A stretch of DNA of 64,000 nucleotides from Echinicola marina (lineage in GTDB: Bacteria > Bacteroidota > Bacteroidia > Cytophagales > Cyclobacteriaceae). Made by a program: the position numbers and the translations under genes. Positions 17,963 through 60,120 of the stretch are shown piece after piece. The number at the start of each line of letters is the position of its first letter. Positions within the stretch are counted from its first letter, which is position 1. The stretch spans positions 3,655,501 through 3,719,500 of the forward strand of contig NZ_CP080025.1 of assembly GCF_020463795.1 (NCBI RefSeq). The letters run 5' to 3'. The notes under the pieces are model-generated. The model was not told the DNA's origin. It searched no databases and saw only the letters and a program-made list of their open reading frames with translations.

Positions 17963-17968
17963 TATGCT

Positions 17969-18017
17969 GTTCCACATTTGCGATGTGAAACTCAAATAAT
18001 AGGGCATTGGTAATGCC
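17969..18017 (+). repeat. double-hairpin repeat, copy A (degenerate)
   Basis: GTTCCACATT TGC GATGTGAAAC followed about ten bases later by AGGGCATT GGT AATGCC. It is the most degenerate of four copies (others at 20052, 20239 and 23903) of a two-hairpin module. Confidence 0.6.
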
Positions 18018-18115
18018 ATAGCATACCCGTTGTGCTGAGGGCTGTGCCCCAGTACCACAAACCCTGAGCCCGCCTGCTGTAGGCAGGCCTGCCTACCTTT
18101 AGGTAGGTCTCAGAC

Positions 18116-18866
18116 TCATTTGATAAAGTAAATAATTCATCCCATTGGCTTTAGGCTTTTAACCTTAGGCCTTTGACTTATACTCAACCCCAGGGACCGC
18201 TGTGATACCTCCGCGTTACGCTGTGGTTACCCTTAGACCTGGTTCATTTGATAAAGTAAATAGTGAGCCCCATCGGCTTTCGGCCTTTAACCTTAGGCCT
18301 TTGCTTATATTCAACTTCAGTGACCGCTGTGCTACCTCTGCGCTACGCTGTGGTTCCCCTTAGCCCCGGCTCATTTGATAAAGTAAATAGTGAGTCCCAT
18401 CAGCTTTCGGCCTTTAACCTTAGGCCTTTGCTTATATTCAACCTCAGTGACCGCTGTGTTACCATTGCGCTACGCTGTGGTTCCCCTTAGCCCCGGCTCA
18501 TTTGATAAAGTAAATATTGAGTCTCATCGGCTTTTGGCCTTAGGCCTTTGACTTATACTCAACCTCAGTGGACTCTGTGCTATCTCTGCGATACTCAGTG
18601 GTTACCCTTAGGCCCGGCTCATTTGATAAAATAAATAATTAGGCCCATCTGCTTTAGGCCTTTAACCTTAGGCCTTTGACTTATATCAACCTCGGTGACC
18701 TCTGTGCTATCTCAGCGCTACGCTGTAGTTACCCTTAGACCCGGCTCATTTGATAATGCCAATAATTAGTCCCATTGGCTTTAGGCTTTTAACTTTAGGC
18801 CTTTGACTTATATTAAACCTCAGAGAGCTCTGTGCTATCTCAGCGCTACGCTGTGGTTCTTCCGAG
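18116..18866 (+). repeat. 127-bp tandem repeat array, six copies
   Basis: Units start with TCATTTGATAA at 18116, 18244, 18371, 18498, 18619 and 18746, giving spacings of 128, 127, 127, 121 and 127 bases. Each contains a palindromic stretch around CTGTGCTACCTCTGCG/CTACGCTGTGGTT and an inner heptad-phased part (CGGCTTT, CGGCCTT, TAACCTT, AGGCCTT). Copies differ by scattered substitutions. Short open frames inside it are not conserved between copies. Upstream, 18060-18115 holds small palindromes (CCTGCC...GGCAGG type). Confidence 0.85.
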
Positions 18867-18932
18867 ACCCCGAAGGGGTCAAACATCACTAACGGATCGG
18901 AATAACAATCATCCACGACCCCGAAGGGGTCG
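18866..18932 (+). repeat. two GACCCC/GGGGTC hairpins before a glycosyltransferase gene
   Basis: GACCCCGAAGGGGTC at 18866-18880 and CGACCCCGAAGGGGTCG at 18916-18932 are near-perfect short hairpins with a GAA loop. The second ends 17 bases before the GTG start at 18950 and could occlude or set the start region. Relatives occur at 20356, 20409, 31358-31797, 32573 and 32622. Confidence 0.65.
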
Positions 18933-20035: not shown

Positions 20036-20051
20036 CGAAGCTGTCGAAGCT

Positions 20052-20102
20052 GTTCCACATTTGCAATGTGGAACCACTATAAAGGGGCATTTGTAATGCC
20101 CC
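20052..20102 (+). repeat. double-hairpin repeat, copy B (perfect)
   Basis: A perfect hairpin (GTTCCACATT, loop TGC, AATGTGGAAC) is followed by a second perfect hairpin (GGGGCATT, loop TGT, AATGCCCC). It lies 17 bases after the stop of the glycosyltransferase gene. No T run follows, so it is not a classical terminator. Confidence 0.75.
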
Positions 20103-20238
20103 ATTGAATCCATGGAAAACGAATATATGCAGATATGTGAGGCACAGGCTAGCGTAAAGAATAATGCGATCTTGCAAAGAGACTCTCTACCAAAGGCAGA
20201 CAGGTTCCTTACACTCAGAGTGACAATCGATTATCGCT

Positions 20239-20288
20239 GTTCCACATTTGCAATGTGGAACCAATATAAAGGGCATTTGCAATGCCCC
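20239..20288 (+). repeat. double-hairpin repeat, copy C
   Basis: Same module as copy B: GTTCCACATT/AATGTGGAAC around TGC, then GGGCATT/AATGCCC around TGC. Between copies B and C, 20150-20228 carries a tract (TTGCAAAGAGACTCT...CTCAGAGTGACAA) that recurs at about 20811-20850. Confidence 0.75.
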
Positions 20289-22342: not shown

Positions 22343-22678
22343 CCAGCCAAGCTTAAAGTCCACAGCCAAAGACGAATGTCAATAGTCCAATGTCAAAAAT
22401 CGAGAACCTAAATCCCCCAACCAATTAACCATTAACCCTAAACCGATCCCCATTCCCCAATCCCATTCCCCAACCCCCAAACAATTAACCAATTAACCCT
22501 TAACCACTCTCCATTTCCAAATCCCCAATCCCGAATCCCTATTCCCCATTCATCATCCTTCCCACCTCGTACCTTATTTCCACTCACGACTCATGACTTT
22601 TATCTCCAATCTCATGTCTCAGGTCTCATGTCTATCCTCAAATTTTTACTAGCTTAGATTTTTCTTAACCTACGAAAT
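22343..22678 (+). repeat. intergenic heptad-repeat tract
   Basis: The 336-base gap is mostly 7-base units: around 22357-22400 CAAAGAC, GAATGTC, AATAGTC, CAATGTC, AAAAATC; then AACCATT/TTAACCC and CATTCCC/CAATCCC types; near 22600-22640 GTCTCAG, GTCTCAT. Strand bias is strong (C over G, pyrimidine-rich). The last 35 bases before the ATG at 22679 are AT-rich and could hold a promoter. Confidence 0.75.
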
Positions 22679-23857
22679 ATGCTCCAATACCTTTTTATCA
22701 TCCTATTGATAGGCCTCTGCATAGCGGACAATAGGCATATGGTCAAGAAAAAAGGCCTGCCCAAAGCTTACCTGTTTCACCTTCAGGCACTCTTGGTCTT
22801 TCATATGCTCATGGTCTTGGTATTTAGCTATTATATCGGCCAAAAAGGAGGGGACAGCCAGGGTTATTGGGCACTGATCGGTCCTTTGGCCCATCCCCAT
22901 GCCAGCTCTTGGGGGGATTATTTTGGGGTAGGCTATCCATTTATGTATTGGCTCAACTATATTCCCTCCAAGGTCCTGAACTGGTCCTGGTATACCGGCA
23001 ATATGCTGTATGGGCTGCTGGGCTATTATGCTTTTAGGTATTTGAGTCATACCGTGTACTACCACTACCAAGCTGCTCCCCAATTCAGGGGATTGCCAAT
23101 GGCCTTACTGTTGCTTTATTGGCCCAATATACATTTTTGGACCGCTGGAGTAGGGAAGGAGGCACTCTGTTTTTGGGGATTGTCAGCCCTGCTTTTTGCC
23201 TTGTCCCGGGGAAGTCAAAAAAGGTATTGGGCATTGGGCATGATTGGCTTGGCCAGTGTTTTTATGGTCAGGACCTATTTGGCCGCCATCATGGCAATAG
23301 CTTTGGTCTTGCTTTTTCTTATGGATTTCAAAAAGCTCTCCAAGTCCCAAAAACAGCTGTTTTGGAGAGGGCTCTTTCTATTGGTTTTATGCATACCCGC
23401 CATTTATAGGTATTCGGGTATCAAGGACTTGCCCAATATTAATCCGATAGCCATCAGCCAGCAACAGATCGCCATGCTCAGTGGGGAGGGCATTGGATCA
23501 TCAGTGCCCGTGAAGGATTATGGATTGGCCATGCGATTGATCACTTATTGGTTCAGGCCTTTTGTTGGGGAAATAAAAGGTGGATTGATGTATATGGCCG
23601 CGGCCATAGAAAATGCCCTGTTGATAGTACTCTTGCTTTTCTTTTTGGTCAAAGCCAAATGGCAAGCTTGGAGGAAAATTCCGCTTTTCCTGCGCTATTC
23701 ACTTGTTTTATTTGTCCTGACATCACTTTTATATGCCAATAGCCTGGGGAATTTGGGCATCATGATGCGCATGAAAGCCCCTTATATGCTATTGATCATA
23801 TTGTTTATGGCTTGGATGTATCAGAAGAAATCCAAACAAACTTCTCAACCCATTTAG
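22679..23857 (+). CDS. polytopic membrane protein, paralogue of 16676-17923
   Basis: 392 residues with about nine hydrophobic segments. It shares GGDSQGYW, FWTAGVGK(E/D)A and ANSLGNLG(I/V)MMRMK with the protein at 16676 and has the same segment order, so the two are paralogues separated by 5 kb. The role is unproven; a polymerase or transporter of the surface glycan is the best guess. ATG at 22679 starts directly with a membrane segment (MLQYLFIILLIGLCIADN). The DNA is GC-richer than its paralogue, arguing that they are not a recent tandem copy. Confidence 0.75.
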   Translation: MLQYLFIILLIGLCIADNRHMVKKKGLPKAYLFHLQALLVFHMLMVLVFSYYIGQKGGDSQGYWALIGPLAHPHASSWGDYFGVGYPFMYWLNYIPSKVLNWSWYTGNMLYGLLGYYAFRYLSHTVYYHYQAAPQFRGLPMALLLLYWPNIHFWTAGVGKEALCFWGLSALLFALSRGSQKRYWALGMIGLASVFMVRTYLAAIMAIALVLLFLMDFKKLSKSQKQLFWRGLFLLVLCIPAIYRYSGIKDLPNINPIAISQQQIAMLSGEGIGSSVPVKDYGLAMRLITYWFRPFVGEIKGGLMYMAAAIENALLIVLLLFFLVKAKWQAWRKIPLFLRYSLVLFVLTSLLYANSLGNLGIMMRMKAPYMLLIILFMAWMYQKKSKQTSQPI

Positions 23858-23902
23858 CAATCAATCAGCCACCCTATACCCATAATTCCCCATTCCCACG
23901 CT

Positions 23903-23952
23903 GTTCCAAATTTGCAATTTGGAACTCATATAAAAGGCCATTTGCAATGCCC
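23903..23952 (+). repeat. double-hairpin repeat, copy D (compensated)
   Basis: First hairpin is GTTCCAAATT, loop TGC, AATTTGGAAC: compared with copies B and C, a C-to-A change on one arm is matched by G-to-T on the other. The second hairpin (GGCCATT TGC AATGCCC) has one mismatch. Confidence 0.7.
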
Positions 23953-24010
23953 AATCCCAAACAATTAACCAGTTAACCCTTAACCCTTAACCATTCACAA
24001 TTCCCGAATC

Positions 24011-24199
24011 CCCATTCTCCATCCTTCCTACTTTAAACTCATATTTTCTACATAGTGACTTAGTGCGGTAGGCTCCCCTTCAGGGGCTGGGGGTAGCGAA
24101 GGGAATGCTGAGACTTATCCCATTCTAAGTCTTTACTTTTTGCTCTTTATTCTTTTATCTTTACTCCCATATAGCGACTAGCTACTCTGAGCATCCCCC
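24011..24199 (+). repeat. direct repeat 1 flanking the deacetylase gene
   Basis: Matches 25709-25887 over almost its whole length apart from scattered substitutions and a deletion of about a dozen bases near 24140. Both contain CATAGTGACTTAGTGCGGTA, the CTCCCCTTCAGGGG hairpin with GGGGGTAGCGA, GGGAATGCTGAGACTTATCC and AGCGACTAGCTACTC. Confidence 0.8.
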
Positions 24200-24633
24200 T
24201 AACCAATTAACCAGTTAACCCTTAACCCTTAACCATTCCTCATTTCCCATTCCCGACCCCAAACACTTAACCAATTAACCCTTAGTCAATTAACACTTAA
24301 CCATTCCCCATTCCTAATTCCTCATTCCCCATTCCCAACCTCAAACACTTAACCAATTAACCCTTAACCCTTAACCATTCTCCATTCCTAATTCCTAATT
24401 CCTCATTCCCCATTCCCGACCCCCCAACCAATTAACCCTTAACCCTTAACCATTCCCGAATCCTCATTCCCCATTCTTCCTCCTAAATTTCACTTTATAG
24501 ACTTAATTAGCTAGGTTTGCTAAAACATTGAATACCTCCAAGGTTCCCCAATGGGAATATAATTGAGGCTTATTGAAATATTTTCGTGATAAACTGTAAA
24601 TATTTATATGCAAAAGTGTATTTTTAGTTGTTG

Positions 24634-25617
24634 ATGAGAAATTCCATTTTTACCATATCGCTGGATTTTGAATTGCATTGGGGAAGGTTCGATAAGTTTC
24701 CACTGGCTGCAGAACGGGAATATTACCAGAATGCCCGCATGGCCATTCCAAAAATATTGGATTTATTTGCCGATTTTGGAATAGAAGCCACTTGGGCCAC
24801 CGTGGGGATGTTATTTGCAGAAAGCTGGGATGAATGGAAGGATTATTTGCCGGAAGATTTTCCCAATTATGACAATATTAAACTATCCGCCTATGAATGG
24901 GCGGCAAAGAACATGCATGAGGCCCCTAATTGTCTTTTTGCTCCGGATCTGATCACCAGAATCATCAATAGTCCTGGCCAGGAAATAGGCTCCCATACGT
25001 TTTCTCATTTTTATACCCAAGAAAAAGGACAAGAGCTTTCCCAGTTTAGGGCGGATTTAAAAATGGCCAAGAAGATAGCAAAGGATAAATTTGGCCTTAG
25101 TCTTAGTTCCTTGGTATTCCCTAGAAATCAATACGGGCCAGAAAGTATTGCTATCTGTAAAGAAGAGGGCTTTGAGGTTTATCGGGGCAATCCTTCCGAT
25201 TGGTTTTGGAAGTCTCCCGAAAAGAGCAACTTGCTCAAGAAGGTTTTCCGTACTGGCGACACCCTTTATGCCTTGGGCAACAGGACATCTTATCCTAAGG
25301 AGCAGATTTTCGATGAAGCTTCAGGGATGATCAATATACCGGCATCCAGATTGCTCAGGCCATATCGACAGCCTTCTATTTTTAATCATCGCCGGATCCA
25401 ACGGATCACAGAGGAAATGACCTTGGCAGCCAAGAAAGGGGAGGTATATCATTTATGGTGGCATCCACATAATTTTGGAACCTATACCTCGGACAACTTA
25501 AGTTTTTTGAAGGTGATTTTACAACATTTTAAGGGACTGAAAGAGGAATACGGCATGCAGTCCTGTAATATGCTATCCCTCAGCGGCGCACACAAAAAAG
25601 TAAAGGCCGTCTCATGA
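24634..25617 (+). CDS. polysaccharide deacetylase (NodB homology, CE4-like)
   Basis: Predicted to remove N- or O-acetyl groups from sugars of the surface glycan. Motif 1 is FTISLDFELHWG with Asp11 and the adjacent acidic residue; motif 2 is EIGSHTFSHFYTQE with the H-x3-H metal ligands; motif 3 appears as VFPRNQYGP; YHLWWHPHNFG near the C-terminus supplies the last His. No signal peptide is seen, so it probably acts in the cytoplasm. The frame opens with two TTGs at 24628, but the ATG at 24634 is preferred (327 residues). The gene is bracketed by ~180-bp direct repeats at 24011 and 25709. Confidence 0.88.
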   Translation: MRNSIFTISLDFELHWGRFDKFPLAAEREYYQNARMAIPKILDLFADFGIEATWATVGMLFAESWDEWKDYLPEDFPNYDNIKLSAYEWAAKNMHEAPNCLFAPDLITRIINSPGQEIGSHTFSHFYTQEKGQELSQFRADLKMAKKIAKDKFGLSLSSLVFPRNQYGPESIAICKEEGFEVYRGNPSDWFWKSPEKSNLLKKVFRTGDTLYALGNRTSYPKEQIFDEASGMINIPASRLLRPYRQPSIFNHRRIQRITEEMTLAAKKGEVYHLWWHPHNFGTYTSDNLSFLKVILQHFKGLKEEYGMQSCNMLSLSGAHKKVKAVS

Positions 25618-26150
25618 TTTAAGCATTAACCCTCTTCCCCCCAAACCCTTAACCCTTAACCAGTTAACCCTTAACCACTCCCCAATCCTCATTCCTCATT
25701 CCTAATTCCCCATTCTCCATCCTTCCTACTTTAAACCTCATATTTTCTACATAGTGACTTAGTGCGGTAGACTCCCCTTCAGGGGCTGGGGGTAGCGATG
25801 GGAATGCTGAGACTTATCCCATTCTTTTTGCTCTTTATTCTTTTATCTTTACTCCCAAATAGCGACTAGCTACTCCGAGCATCCCCCAAACCCCAAAACA
25901 CTTAACCATTCCCCACTCCCGAATCCCCAAACCCTTAACCAGTTAACCCTTAACCATTCACAATTCCCCACTCCCGAACCCCAAAACACTTAACCAATTA
26001 ACCCTTAACCACTCCCCATTCCTAATTCCTAATTCCCCATTCCTAATTCCTCATTCCCCATTCCTCATTTCCCACTCCCCATTCACCCTACTTCGTACAT
26101 CGTACCTTATACTTTATACCTTATCTCCGTCTCAAATCCCCACCCGATAA
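25618..26150 (+). repeat. intergenic heptad-repeat tract downstream of the deacetylase
   Basis: Dominated by TTAACCC, CATTCCC, TAATTCC and TCATTCC units in 7-base phase, ending with CCTTATA, CTTTATA, CCTTATC near 26110-26130. It contains direct repeat 2. The tract is pyrimidine-rich on the + strand throughout. Confidence 0.82.
25709..25887 (+). repeat. direct repeat 2 flanking the deacetylase gene
   Basis: Partner of 24011-24199. The main difference is loss of roughly the AAGTCTTTACTTT segment, equal to about two heptads, consistent with slippage in 7-base steps. Confidence 0.8.
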
Positions 26151-26266: not shown

Positions 26267-26442
26267 TTTAACCCGTTTTATGCATTAGGAATCGTTATGA
26301 GAACTGAAACTACAAGAAAATCAGGCTGTTTGGAGATTGAATCATAGCATCGCTATGGTGAAATCGAAAACAGCAGCGAAGCGACTGATTTTAAAGTAGT
26401 TTCAGGTCGCAATAGATAGGCTAATGCATAATGCGGGTTTAA
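26267..26442. repeat. 176-bp fold-back element, copy 1
   Basis: The 22-base ends 26267-26288 and 26421-26442 are inverted repeats (19 of 22 paired; core TTATGCATTAG). Inside, nested pairs continue almost to the centre: AACTAC 26308-26313 with GTAGTT 26396-26401, AAAATCAG 26317-26324 with CTGATTTT 26385-26392, GCTGTTT 26325-26331 with AAACAGC 26368-26374, GATT 26335-26338 with AATC 26362-26365, and CATAGC 26343-26348 with GCTATG 26352-26357. Copy 2 at 59945 has the same length. It ends 229 bases before a sulfatase gene. It could be a MITE-like element, a REP relative or a structured RNA. Confidence 0.88.
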
Positions 26443-26671: not shown

Positions 26672-28741
26672 ATGCATAAAAGACCAAGCTTTTTTACCTG
26701 GGTGCTGATGGGCAGCTTCTTGCTTTCTTTTAGCCTCAGCGCACAACAGTCTTCCAAAGAGAAGCCGAATATCATCTTTATCCTCACAGATGACCTGGGC
26801 TATGGGGACTTGGGCAAATTCTTCCAAAATGAACGGATGGCTACTGGAGACCGTAGTGAACCTTGGATCTTGACCCCGGAACTGGACAAGATGGCCGAAG
26901 CAGGGGCCATGCTCACCAATCATTACACCGCAGCACCTGTCTGTGCGCCTTCCAGGGCATCCATTTTAATGGGCGTCAGCCAAGGCCATGCCCATGTCAG
27001 GGATAATCAGTTTGACAAATACCTGGGAGACAATTATACCATCGCCGATGTGCTCAAAGAAGCAGGCTATTCCACCGCCTTGATCGGCAAATGGGGCTTG
27101 CAGGGACCGGGGGAAGGACCTGACTGGCCATCACATCCACTAAAAAAAGGATTTGATTATTACTATGGCTATATCCGCCACCGTGATGGCCACGAACACT
27201 ATCCCGTGGAAGGGGTTTACCGCGGCCAAAAGGAGGTATACGAAAATTATAAGATCGCCCAAGGGCTGGACAAATGCTATACGGGAGACCTTTTTACGGC
27301 CAAAGCCAAGCAGTATATTATAGAACATAATCAGGATAAGGAAGATGAACCCTTTTTTATGTTCCTTTCCTATGATACACCCCATGCGGTATTGGAGCTG
27401 CCCACCCAGGATTACCCGGAAGGCGCGGGCCTAAATGGTGGCTTGCAATGGCTGGGAACTCCAGGTAAAATGATCAACACGGCCTCTGGAGAGGTAGATA
27501 CTTTTACTTATCCTGAGTTTGCCAATGCCACCTATGATGATGACAAAGATCCTTCTACTCCCGAGGTGGCCTGGCCGGATACCTATAAGCGCTATGCTAC
27601 GGTCAATAGAAGAATTGATGATCAGGTAGGGGATATCCTGCAATTATTGAAGGACTTGGAAATAGATGAAAACACCCTGGTAGTCTTTACCTCTGATAAT
27701 GGCCCTTCCAGGGAATCTTACCTGCCAAAGGAATATGTGGACTATACGCCTGAGTTCTTTAATAATTTCGCCCATTTTGACGGGATCAAGAGGGATGTCT
27801 ATGAAGGGGGATTAAGAACAGCTACCATTGCCTATTGGCCCGGACAGATCAAGGACAATACCGTGGTGGATGCCCCAAGTATCTCTTATGATTGGTTGCC
27901 TACTTTTGCAGAGGCTGCTGGAATAGCAGCGCCGGTGAGGACAGACGGGGTGTCATTATTGCCTGCTTTGACCCATAGGGGGAAGCAGGAAGCAAGCTTT
28001 GTCTATGTGGAATATTTCCAAAATGGAGCAGTGCCAAAATATGCAGAATTTGATGAAAACCATCAAGGTAAAAAACGGGGACAAATGCAGATGATCCGAA
28101 AGGGCAAGCATGTTGGGCTAAGGTACAATATCCAAAGCCATGAGGATGATTTTGAAATTTATGATGTCAGTGCAGATAGCCAGCAGACCGAGAATTTGGC
28201 CGCGGCAATGCCTGGACTTCAGCGTGAATTAAAAGCGGTAGTATTGAGAAGCAGAATGGCGGATGCTGAAGCGCCCAGGCCTTATGATAAAGAGTTGGTA
28301 CCTGCCATGGAAATCAAGAAGGCAAAGCCTGGCTTGACCCTTTATACTTATGGCTTTGATACCCCTTGGATTCCCCAGCTGAGCGCTAAGGCCAAAAAAG
28401 GACAAAAACTAAGCAGTCTCACACCGGTCAATGTCCCATCTGGTAGACATCTTCAGGTTTTTGAAGGATATATCAATGTGCCCGGTGACGGTAAATACGA
28501 ATTTTCTATAGAGGCTGGAGCCCAAAAGGTCTTTATGCGCATCCATGATATGGCGGTCTTGGATGGAAATTATTCCACCGAAGGCCCGATTTCAGGTAGC
28601 GTATACCTAGAGGCGGGCTATCATCCTATCAAGCTTTATTATTCAAATAAGGAACTAAGTACAGATCCCGAATTGAACCTATTCTGGAACTTCAATGATA
28701 CTGGAAAAACTGAGTTACCGGATAATGTTTATTTCAGGTAA
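26672..28741 (+). CDS. secreted sulfatase with C-terminal PA14-like domain
   Basis: Type I (formylglycine) sulfatase of 689 residues, predicted to cut sulfate esters from polysaccharides outside the cytoplasm. Residues 1-25 form a signal peptide (FFTWVLMGSFLLSFSLSAQ). Metal-binding Asp40-Asp41 lie in IIFILTDDLGYGDLG, and Cys91 in CAPSRAS is the residue converted to formylglycine. VVFTSDNGPSRES carries the later Asp-Asn ligands. Residues about 570-689 (LQVFEGYINVPGDGKYEFSI and on) resemble a PA14 carbohydrate-binding domain. It is monocistronic, following fold-back copy 1, and is not next to its maturation enzyme in this window. Confidence 0.9.
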   Translation: MHKRPSFFTWVLMGSFLLSFSLSAQQSSKEKPNIIFILTDDLGYGDLGKFFQNERMATGDRSEPWILTPELDKMAEAGAMLTNHYTAAPVCAPSRASILMGVSQGHAHVRDNQFDKYLGDNYTIADVLKEAGYSTALIGKWGLQGPGEGPDWPSHPLKKGFDYYYGYIRHRDGHEHYPVEGVYRGQKEVYENYKIAQGLDKCYTGDLFTAKAKQYIIEHNQDKEDEPFFMFLSYDTPHAVLELPTQDYPEGAGLNGGLQWLGTPGKMINTASGEVDTFTYPEFANATYDDDKDPSTPEVAWPDTYKRYATVNRRIDDQVGDILQLLKDLEIDENTLVVFTSDNGPSRESYLPKEYVDYTPEFFNNFAHFDGIKRDVYEGGLRTATIAYWPGQIKDNTVVDAPSISYDWLPTFAEAAGIAAPVRTDGVSLLPALTHRGKQEASFVYVEYFQNGAVPKYAEFDENHQGKKRGQMQMIRKGKHVGLRYNIQSHEDDFEIYDVSADSQQTENLAAAMPGLQRELKAVVLRSRMADAEAPRPYDKELVPAMEIKKAKPGLTLYTYGFDTPWIPQLSAKAKKGQKLSSLTPVNVPSGRHLQVFEGYINVPGDGKYEFSIEAGAQKVFMRIHDMAVLDGNYSTEGPISGSVYLEAGYHPIKLYYSNKELSTDPELNLFWNFNDTGKTELPDNVYFR

Positions 28742-31310: not shown

Positions 31311-31783
31311 ATTTTTTATTTAATTTGCCGAGTTTGATAGATGAAACAGGATATGTTCGACTCCTTTGGAGTCGCAGGATACTTTAGATTAGACGATCTC
31401 GTTAAGAATGTTTGATCCCTTCGGGATCATTGTTCAGGAGTAACCTATTCTTGATACCATATTTTTTAATGTCATAGTCAGAAGGGTTAAAATATGCTTG
31501 CTCCATTTGCATCCAGATATGGTCCCACTTCCTCTAAGAAAATTGGCCATGTTACGGTCTATACCCCTAAAGGGGGGAAACATTTTTATATTCATAAAGA
31601 AGATTGATCTTTTGATCGGAATGAGGTCAAATATTCCATCAGGTAAGAGACTATTATAATCTTTGCACTATGCGATTGGCCTTATCGATAGTTCCCTTAA
31701 TATATTTATTACCCACCTCTCTATTGCCCTTACCCCGAAGGGGTAAAACATGCTTAGCCTGGTATACGATATCCCCCTAGCGA
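31311..31783 (+). other. gap with a cluster of short hairpins
   Basis: No gene recognised. Hairpins: CGACTCCTTTGGAGTCG 31358-31374, GATCCCTTCGGGATC 31414-31428, ACCCCTAAAGGGG near 31562-31575, TACCCCGAAGGGGTA 31731-31745, and CGACCCCGACGTGGTCG 31781-31797. The stem is kept while its sequence varies between copies. They lead into the 158-bp array. Confidence 0.6.
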
Positions 31784-32573
31784 CCCCGACGTGGTCGAAA
31801 ATACTATTGATAATTGGAAACGTTCAATACAGTTTGTACCGTGAAGGATGCATTATTCAAATTCAATTAGGATGATATATTCCTTATGTATTCGGGCGCA
31901 GAGAGCATTTATTTTTAAAAATCATTCCGTTACCCTCAGTACCCCGACGTGGTCGAAAATACTATTGTTAATTGTAAACGTTCAATACAGTTTGTACTGC
32001 GAAGGATGTATTATTCAAATTCAATTAGGATGATATATTCCTTATGTATTTGGACGCAGAGAGGATTTAATTTTGAAAATCATTCCGTTACCCTCAGTAC
32101 CCCGACGTGGTCGAAAATTCTATTGATAATTGGAAACGTTCAATACAGTTTGTACCGCGAAGGATATATTATTCAAATTCAATTAGGATGATATGTTCCT
32201 TATGTATTTGGACGCAGAGAGCATTTATTTTTAAAAATCTTTCCGTTACCCTCAGTACCCCGACGTGGTCGAAAATACTATTGTTAATTGGAAACGTTCA
32301 ATACAGTTTGTACCGCGAAGGATGCATTATTCAAATTCAATTAGGATGATATGTTCCTTATGTATTCGGGCGCAGAGAGGATTTATTTTTGAAAATTTTC
32401 CCGTAACCCTCAGTACCCCGACGTGGTCGAAAATTCTATTGATAATTGGAAACGTTCAATACAGTTTGTACCGCGAAGGATGCATTATTCAAATTCAATT
32501 AGGATGATATGTTCCTTATGTATTCGGGCGCAGAGAGCATTTAATTTTGAAAATTTTCCCGTTACCATCAATA
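31784..32573 (+). repeat. 158-bp tandem repeat array, five exact-length units
   Basis: The marker CCCCGA occurs at 31784, 31942, 32100, 32258, 32416 and 32574, every spacing exactly 158 bases. Units differ only by scattered substitutions and no length changes. Each has a CCCCGACGTGG(T)CGAAAAT hairpin-derived boundary, then GGAAACGTTCAATACAGTTT, TTCAAATTCAATTAGGATGA and GCGCAGAGAG blocks. 158 is not a multiple of three, so the array cannot be one repeated protein. The last boundary changes to ACCCCGAAGGGGTAAAA. Confidence 0.93.
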
Positions 32574-32638
32574 CCCCGAAGGGGTAAAAACATAATTAGA
32601 TCGAAAGCGATAATCAGAACACGACCCCGACGGGGTCG
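32573..32638 (+). repeat. two hairpins after the tandem array
   Basis: TACCCCGAAGGGGTA at 32573-32587 and CGACCCCGACGGGGTCG at 32622-32638; the latter is followed by AATTTTTATC and could weakly terminate transcription entering from the left. Confidence 0.55.
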
Positions 32639-32716
32639 AATTTTTATCGAGAAAAGAAATTGATTAAAAATACCAAAAACATTATATTCCATAGCTACAA
32701 CCAATAAACCTTAGCG

Positions 32717-59944: not shown

Positions 59945-60120
59945 TTTAACCCGGATTATGCATTAGCAATCGTAGTGAGGACTAAAAATGCAAGAAAATC
60001 AGGCTGTTTGGAGACTGAGGCATAGCACCGCTATGGTGAAGTCGAAAACAGCAGCAAAGCGTCTGATTTTAAAGCATTTTCAGTCCGTAATAGATAAGCT
60101 AATGCATATTTCGGGTTTAA
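59945..60120. repeat. 176-bp fold-back element, copy 2
   Basis: Same length as copy 1 at 26267. Inverted ends 59945-59966 and 60099-60120 (19 of 22 paired). Inner pairs include AAATGC 59986-59991 with GCATTT 60074-60079, and GACT 60013-60016 with AGTC 60040-60043. Compared with copy 1, several pairs changed on both sides. It ends 46 bases before the ATG at 60167, so it forms most of the leader of the phosphatase gene. Confidence 0.88.

What the first reader, a model, noticed from the sequence alone, without database searches (positions are those of the whole stretch)
26267..26442. 176-bp fold-back element, two copies 33 kb apart with compensating changes
Copies at 26267-26442 and 59945-60120 have identical length and 22-base inverted ends. 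Comparing them, paired positions changed together: 26308-26313/26396-26401 is AACTAC/GTAGTT in copy 1 and AAATGC/GCATTT in copy 2 (two covarying pairs); GATT/AATC becomes GACT/AGTC; 26302/26407 A-T becomes G-C at 59980/60085. At least four covarying pairs imply selection for the folded form, as RNA or as single-stranded DNA. Both copies precede secreted hydrolase genes (sulfatase 26672; phosphatase 60167). It could be a MITE-like or REP-derived element or an undescribed structured RNA.
Basis: seen in the sequence. Interest (0 to 1): 0.8.

Follow-up and report, generated by a model that had tools for sequence, protein, structure and literature searches.

The report
Jumping DNA with a conserved fold
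The two look-alike stretches are copies of a small transposon, probably spread by a borrowed enzyme through many related bacteria, whose 176-letter body has kept one folded shape while its sequence changed, which suggests that the fold itself helps the element to spread.

Summary
The 176-bp fold-back is a miniature inverted-repeat element (MITE) with CCCG..TATGCATTAG ends and 5-bp TTNAA target duplications (identical in 30 of 38 own-genome copies and 44 of 71 rows from relatives). A copy nested in another duplicates TTTAA exactly. Four IS1380-family transposons in related genomes have closely similar ends and a TTNAA duplication, so an IS1380-type transposase is the likely mover, though the own genome lacks one.

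The body is not filler. A covariance model finds it in 115 of 344 family genomes and in 17 genomes of seven other families of the order. 45 of 53 pairs show double changes; a tree-based test supports 18 (12 on a structure-blind alignment), against 0-2 for slid partners. The + strand folds better in 63 of 64 copies, so one strand, probably as RNA, seems selected. Private mutations hit stems as freely as loops: selection seems to act on the spreading lineage, not on each site. The hydrolase neighbourhood is not general. No Rfam match. What the fold does is inferred.

The parts
26267..26442 (+). Copy 1 of the element, including both TTTAA target-site duplications (subfamily A)
26267..26271 (+). 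Left target-site duplication TTTAA
   Evidence: TTNAA identical on both sides in 30 of 38 own copies
26438..26442 (+). Right target-site duplication TTTAA
26272..26288 (+). Left terminal inverted repeat CCCGTTTTATGCATTAG
   Evidence: closely similar to the ends of IS1380-family transposons
26421..26437 (+). Right terminal inverted repeat (CTAATGCATAATGCGGG)
26343..26357 (+). Tip hairpin CATAGC-ATC-GCTATG, within helix 8 of the consensus fold
   Evidence: 97% of cells paired, 5 of 7 pairs with double changes
26376..26382 (+). Side hairpin GC-GAA-GC on the 3' arm only (three-way junction)
   Evidence: columns 110-116 (GC/AT/GT) and 111-115 (CG/TG/TA) rank 1st and 4th of the local column pairs, p 0.004 and 0.012 uncorrected
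59945..60120 (+). Copy 2 of the element, including both TTTAA duplications (subfamily B)
59950..59966 (+). Left terminal inverted repeat of copy 2
60099..60115 (+). Right terminal inverted repeat of copy 2
26672..28741 (+). Neighbouring sulfatase gene (context only)
   Evidence: PF00884
60167..62011 (+). Neighbouring alkaline phosphatase / GDPD_2 gene (context only)
   Evidence: PF00245, PF13653

Best explanation
It is a non-autonomous transposon (MITE) moved in trans by an IS1380-family DDE transposase. The enzyme recognises the CCCG..TATGCATTAG ends and inserts at TTNAA, duplicating those 5 bp (ends and duplications shown by sequence; movement by this enzyme inferred). Between the ends the element keeps, across the order that I take to be Cytophagales, one long imperfect hairpin with conserved internal loops, a three-way junction and a tip hairpin, which folds better on one strand (supported by covariation and by folding). 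Selection on that fold appears to act on the lineage that keeps spreading, not on each inserted copy (supported). The most likely reading is that the folded + strand, as RNA made by read-through from neighbouring promoters, helps the element's own propagation, for instance by binding the transposase or by making insertions tolerable to the host (inferred; RNA about 60%, single-stranded DNA about 25%).
For: Duplications and ends; natural empty site by nesting (L026). IS1380-family elements of 1,412-1,428 bp with TTCAA, TTAAA, TTTAA and TTTAA duplications and closely similar 17-nt ends (13-15 of 17 matching between the two ends): 4 of the 16 loci examined (L224, the same copy as L137; L227; L228; L230). 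Transposase family NF033539, 259.7 bits against a cut-off of 180. Genomes with the transposase carry the element more often: 17 of 29 against 98 of 315, odds ratio 3.1, p 0.004, not corrected for kinship. Fold: 45 of 53 pairs with double changes, 489 double-change cells against 126.4 +/- 11.6 in shuffles; tree-based test (my own script) 18 of 53 pairs, 12 of 53 on a MAFFT alignment, slid partners 0-1 and 0-2. Strand: 63 of 64 copies fold better on +, interior alone 64 of 64, mean 16.0 and 10.3 kcal/mol; G.T events exceed A.C, 69:39 to 121:56 on the MAFFT alignment for Watson-Crick cut-offs of 0.8 to 0.5. Level of selection: singletons 91 in 492 paired against 37 in 164 unpaired columns, p 0.38; pairs kept 191 of 321 between lineages against 36 of 91 singletons, p 0.0008.
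Against: The own genome has no IS1380 transposase by three searches. Of 32 genomes with the element, chosen mostly as element-rich, only 4 had a PF13701 match and 2 one over the cut-off. G010 and G237, with about 250-320 copies by end counts, have none over the cut-off; G010 has a fragment with a stop. The mover there is therefore lost, or is another enzyme. 12 of the 16 IS1380 loci did not show these ends (some cut by contig ends, some distant relatives), and 12 of 29 genomes with the transposase showed no element. At the strictest cut-off G.T against A.C is 31:20, p 0.16, and singletons show the same lean, 25:11, so part of that bias may be mutational. In a test over all column pairs only one pair exceeded every null value. 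The 64 sequences are related, so 63 of 64 is not 64 independent trials. Transcription was not tested.
Confidence: 0.74

Rival explanations
1. The fold acts as single-stranded DNA: the hairpin forms in one DNA strand during replication or transposition and brings the two ends together, as proposed for REPINs, so the covariation is selected at DNA level.
For: Whole-element hairpin with paired ends; REPINs show compensatory changes under element-level selection (PMC3116915, passages); selection at lineage level.
Against: 5-bp duplications and DDE-type ends; no significant bias towards one replication strand, 59 against 82, p 0.064; G.T preferred over A.C and a side hairpin on one strand fit RNA better.
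Confidence: 0.2
2. It is a host regulatory RNA or 3'-UTR element spread by transposition and kept at each site because it controls neighbouring genes.
For: Among 105 rows, with relatives largely represented by their best-scoring copies, 45 lie in the sense of both flanking genes and 20 against; other MITEs alter mRNA stability (PMC10969869, passages).
Against: 92 copies from stretches of two high-copy genomes show 16 against 30, the other way, p 0.054; own genome 11 against 10; singletons damage stems as freely as loops.
Confidence: 0.08
3. An ordinary decaying palindrome: the arms stay complementary through intra-hairpin gene conversion or template switching, with no selected function.
For: Arm-to-arm repair can mimic compensatory change (recalled); short internal-deletion derivatives exist.
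Against: Internal loops and bulges keep their places in the alignment, wobble pairs persist (column pair 33-144: GT 31, GC 17, AC 0, other 16), the side hairpin lies on one arm only, and most of the best-scoring places listed across genera and families are 172-178 nt long.
Confidence: 0.07
4. A REP/REPIN-type element moved by a RAYT (Y1) transposase.
For: Y1 transposase genes occur in 12 of 12 genomes searched.
Against: TTNAA duplications and IS1380-like ends; no copy within the 12 Y1 loci read, one per genome, out of several such genes per genome.
Confidence: 0.03

Closest known systems
MITEs of bacteria (e.g. the IS982-derived Cardinium MITE, PMC9769881)
   Same: Short, inverted ends, target duplication, mostly intergenic, a likely parental IS
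   Different: Here the interior is a conserved, covarying fold across an order; the Cardinium MITE is IS982-derived and reported from one strain (PMC9769881, first of three parts read)
ERIC (imperfect palindrome of Enterobacteriaceae and Vibrionaceae)
   Same: Long imperfect palindrome (recalled), many intergenic copies in several genera
   Different: Other lineage; here a likely parental IS family and a TTNAA duplication are identified (ERIC copy numbers and hosts from PMC10969869 passages; the rest recalled; sequences not compared)
REPIN / REP-RAYT
   Same: Mobile hairpin with compensatory changes and selection at element level (PMC3116915, passages)
   Different: REPINs are linked to Y1 transposases; this element has DDE-type ends and 5-bp duplications
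IS1380-family transposons (e.g. IS1247, 5-bp repeat)
   Same: Closely similar 17-nt ends and TTNAA duplication in four members of the same family of bacteria; IS1247 is listed with a 5-bp repeat (PMC3281130, table passage)
   Different: The 176-nt body is not part of these IS elements: the model gives one weak hit (41.5 bits, L236) in 16 IS1380 loci

Membership tests
MITE | Terminal inverted repeats | tested here: met
   17-nt ends inside the duplications
MITE | Target-site duplication | tested here: met
   identical TTNAA in 30 of 38 own copies and 44 of 71 rows from relatives; nested insertion duplicates TTTAA
MITE | No transposase gene, with an autonomous relative sharing the ends | tested here: met
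   176 nt; IS1380-family elements with closely similar ends and duplication in four related genomes; none in the own genome
IS1380-derived element | Mobilised by an IS1380 transposase | not testable with these tools
   inferred from ends, duplication and co-occurrence
REPIN / RAYT | Association with Y1 transposase genes | tested here: inconclusive
   Y1 genes in 12 of 12 genomes; the element is absent from the 12 loci read, one per genome, other Y1 loci not read
REPIN / RAYT | No DDE-type target duplication (definition recalled) | tested here: not met
Known structured RNA (Rfam 15) | Match above gathering score | tested here: not met
   window none; around copy 1 and in 8 loci with copies only hits far below cut-off
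Structured RNA in general | Covariation above phylogenetic expectation | tested here: met
   18 of 53 and 12 of 53 pairs, slid controls 0-2, by a script of my own; R-scape itself was not available
Structured RNA in general | Transcribed | not testable with these tools
   no expression data

The most novel reading that the evidence does not exclude
A mobile structured RNA: the element encodes a roughly 176-nt folded RNA, conserved through Cytophagales, that takes part in the spread of a DDE transposon, for example as an RNA partner of the IS1380-family transposase or of its mRNA. A non-coding RNA working with this class of cut-and-paste transposase would be new as far as I recall; the paper searches listed nothing of the kind.
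Probability: 0.22. Interest if true: 0.88.

Novelty: new variant of a known kind. Interest (0 to 1): 0.66.

Why it matters
MITEs are usually treated as ends plus filler. Here the filler is a fold kept across an order while the sequence diverges, better on one strand, with selection apparently at the level of the spreading lineage. That makes a testable case of an RNA or single-stranded DNA structure serving a DDE-type transposon, and gives a likely source (an IS1380-type transposase) for an intergenic repeat that reaches some 300 copies in some genomes of this group.

Tried and rejected
Host-gene control: an early lean (45 sense against 20 antisense among 105 rows) vanished or reversed in 92 copies from two high-copy genomes (16 against 30). 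In the first set the relatives were largely best-scoring copies (34 against 10), the own genome gave 11 against 10, so I give it little weight. The 92 copies come from 60 stretches, 40 of them chosen around known copies or ends and 20 spaced along G010.

Encoded peptide: subfamily A has a 16-codon frame (read by eye), but stops interrupt it elsewhere (e.g. ATGAGGACTTAA in G029); rejected.

Replication-strand preference: 59 against 82, p 0.064 over three genomes; not supported. Replichores were placed by GC skew of sampled stretches only.

Reach: 6 of 395 genomes in a phylum sample, 3 of them outside the order, two of these weak. Phages: no match. Plasmids: 1 record, Microscilla plasmid pSD15, 72.6% identity.

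Insert modules as independent repeats: four hairpin inserts were found only inside copies or derivatives of this element in the own-genome stretches searched (those listed there as outside lie in L037, the same place as L026, and in the derivatives of L081, L086 and L090).

Weak points of my own tests. The 71 rows from relatives include one copy read twice (L054 and L095, neither with identical 5-mers), and L029 and L030 have the same flanks, so are one insertion event. The consensus of the 168-nt set from G237 lacks the true left end. The 16 comparisons were picked by hand, so I rely on the 33 disjoint nearest pairs. Rows left out: L039 and L040 (poorly bounded); L063, L067 and L068 (partial or not bounded) among relatives; three cut-off or short matches, plus two copies without a gene on both sides (94 typed, 92 counted); copies under 85% to their consensus; copies of 95% identity or more before the covariation test (82 to 64); the 77 loci given to one search were chosen to limit near-identical copies.

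Full report
What is there. Both copies are present as described: 176 nt, 22-nt inverted ends (19 of 22 matching), 24 differences; five pairs changed on both sides and kept, two changed on one side and kept, three broken in copy 2. The window lies in a one-contig 5.69-Mb genome; the closest relatives of the neighbouring sulfatase are in Echinicola, which I take as the genus. A DNA search of that genome lists 61 matches, some of them reverse-strand echoes of the palindrome. I read 40 places. Besides the 176-nt form there are 196-nt and 214-258-nt forms with extra GC-rich hairpins at fixed points, and internal deletions of 56, 74 and 107 bp measured from AACCCG to CGGGTT.

It is a transposon. The outermost bases TTNAA are a direct repeat, not part of the palindrome: the middle base agrees on both sides and may be T, A, C or G. 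Identical TTNAA occurs in 30 of 38 own copies and 44 of 71 rows from relatives, one copy being in there twice. One copy lies inside another, and the interrupted copy reads GAT-TTTAA-[element]-TTTAA-AGTAG where uninterrupted copies read GAT-TTTAA-AGTAG. This is a natural empty-site test.

What moves it. I guessed an IS1380-family enzyme from the 5-bp duplication (recalled) and tested it. In L137, from a genome of the same genus, a 440-residue transposase (NF033539, 259.7 bits against a cut-off of 180; PF13701) is flanked by TTCAA duplications, CCGTGATTATGCAATAG and the inverted CCCGGATTATGCATTAG. Of 16 transposase loci examined, four (L224, the same copy as L137; L227; L228; L230) show such ends and a TTNAA duplication at 1,412-1,428 bp; the other 12 do not, some being cut by contig ends and some distant relatives. 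Transposase relatives occur in 29 of 344 genomes of the family, and 17 of those 29 carry the element against 98 of the other 315. Against this, the own genome has none; of 32 element-bearing genomes only 4 had a PF13701 match, 2 over the cut-off; and the two genomes with some 250-320 copies by end counts have none over the cut-off, one keeping a fragment with a stop. Either the enzyme was lost after the bursts or another enzyme helps.

The body is conserved. The model R1, built from 22 diverse copies, finds the element in 115 of 344 genomes of the family, 41 of 84 genera. In a sample of 390 genomes of the order it finds 48, of which 17 belong to seven other families, a few of them weakly. In a phylum sample it finds 6 of 395, three outside the order. 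The lists are capped, but most of the best-scoring places listed are 172-178 nt long; longer ones of about 194-199 nt match the insert forms in length, and weaker matches vary more.

Covariation. On 82 matches (81 distinct), 94.1% of cells pair, 45 of 53 pairs have double changes, and double-change cells number 489 against 126.4 +/- 11.6 in shuffles; with slid partners pairing falls to 28-41% and double-change cells to 65-111. That alignment was fitted to the model, so I repeated the test on a MAFFT alignment of the same 64 non-redundant copies, with a null that keeps the tree and the number of substitutions per column (a script of my own in the manner of R-scape). Significant pairs: 18 of 53 (fitted) and 12 of 53 (MAFFT); slid partners give 0-1 and 0-2. 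In a stricter test over all column pairs only one exceeds every null value, and it is a stem pair. A small side hairpin on the 3' arm, absent from the 5' arm, also covaries: its two pairs rank 1st and 4th of the local column pairs (p 0.004 and 0.012, uncorrected). It makes a three-way junction, which a simple palindrome does not explain.

One strand. The + strand folds better than its complement in 63 of 64 copies (mean 16.0 kcal/mol), and in 64 of 64 for the interior alone (10.3 kcal/mol). G.T mismatches arise more often than A.C: on the MAFFT alignment 121:56 events for pairs at least half Watson-Crick, 103:49 at 0.7, 69:39 (p 0.005) at 0.8, but 31:20 (p 0.16) at 0.9. Singletons show a like lean, 25:11, so mutation may contribute. 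I take strand-specific selection as likely, RNA as more likely than single-stranded DNA, and neither as proven.

Level of selection. Within four sets of copies (7, 14, 17 and 38), singletons fall in stems and loops alike (91 in 492 against 37 in 164 columns, p 0.38) and mostly break pairs (55 of 91). Between lineages, in 33 disjoint nearest pairs, 191 of 321 changed pairs stay paired, 87 of them by double change, against 36 of 91 singletons (p 0.0008). So inserted copies seem to drift, while the lineage that goes on spreading keeps the fold. The simplest reading is that the fold serves propagation of the element. The search tools miss badly damaged copies, which would hide some breaks, not create them.

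Where it sits. 0 of 92 copies in two genomes overlap a called reading frame by more than 50 nt; 1 of 105 rows in another set lies inside a frame. Orientation to neighbouring genes is inconsistent (45:20:30). The hydrolase neighbours in the window therefore look incidental.

Known or new. No Rfam family matches above its cut-off. Paper searches listed no description of this element; the library holds only open-licence papers. The nearest MITE found in print, from Cardinium, is IS982-derived and reported from one strain (PMC9769881, first of three parts read). REPINs are the closest precedent for compensatory change under element-level selection (PMC3116915, passages). A 5-bp repeat for an IS1380-family element is in print (PMC3281130, table passage); PMC4133298 (passages) gave nothing on TTNAA. 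I file it as a new variant of the MITE kind: mobility is ordinary, the conserved, strand-biased body is not.

Noticed in passing
L257, L258, L261, L262 (genomes G237 and G287): Another insertion sequence (frames of 461-489 aa in three of the loci, 369 aa in L261; ends CAATGTCGTTTAG / CTAAACGACATTG) sits exactly in the terminal 10 bp of this element in 4 of 4 loci read, with 10-bp duplications such as ATATTTCGGG and CCCGGATTAT: an IS that targets MITE ends. End hits at the same distance lie beside two more copies.
   Followed up: partly
L026, 1435-1820 (own genome 3334885-3335270): One element nested inside another of the other subfamily, giving an exact empty-site comparison.
   Followed up: yes
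own-genome copies L008-L011, L026-L028, L031, L033-L036, L038, L041: GC-rich hairpin modules (about 20-34 nt) inserted at fixed loop positions, in both subfamilies; not found outside copies or derivatives of the element in the stretches searched.
   Followed up: partly
L029 and L030 (own genome 5441424 and 626035): Two identical copies with identical 25-nt flanks, so a duplicated chromosome segment rather than two insertions.
   Followed up: no
NC_002806.1 55492-55655 (L276): A copy on the mobilizable plasmid pSD15 of Microscilla sp. PRE1, a possible vehicle between genera.
   Followed up: no
L138, L148, L151 (genome G029): Copies of the element lie on both sides of partial IS1380-type transposase genes, like a composite transposon.
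   Followed up: no
window 17966-18017, 20049-20100, 20236-20287, 23900-23951: A second short palindromic repeat family, GCTGTTCCACATTTGC.., four copies.
   Followed up: no
window 31783-32714 and 18115-18869: Tandem arrays of 158-bp and about 127-bp units.
   Followed up: no
window, intergenic stretches within 22405-26084: Degenerate TTAACC / CCCATTCC repeats.
   Followed up: no
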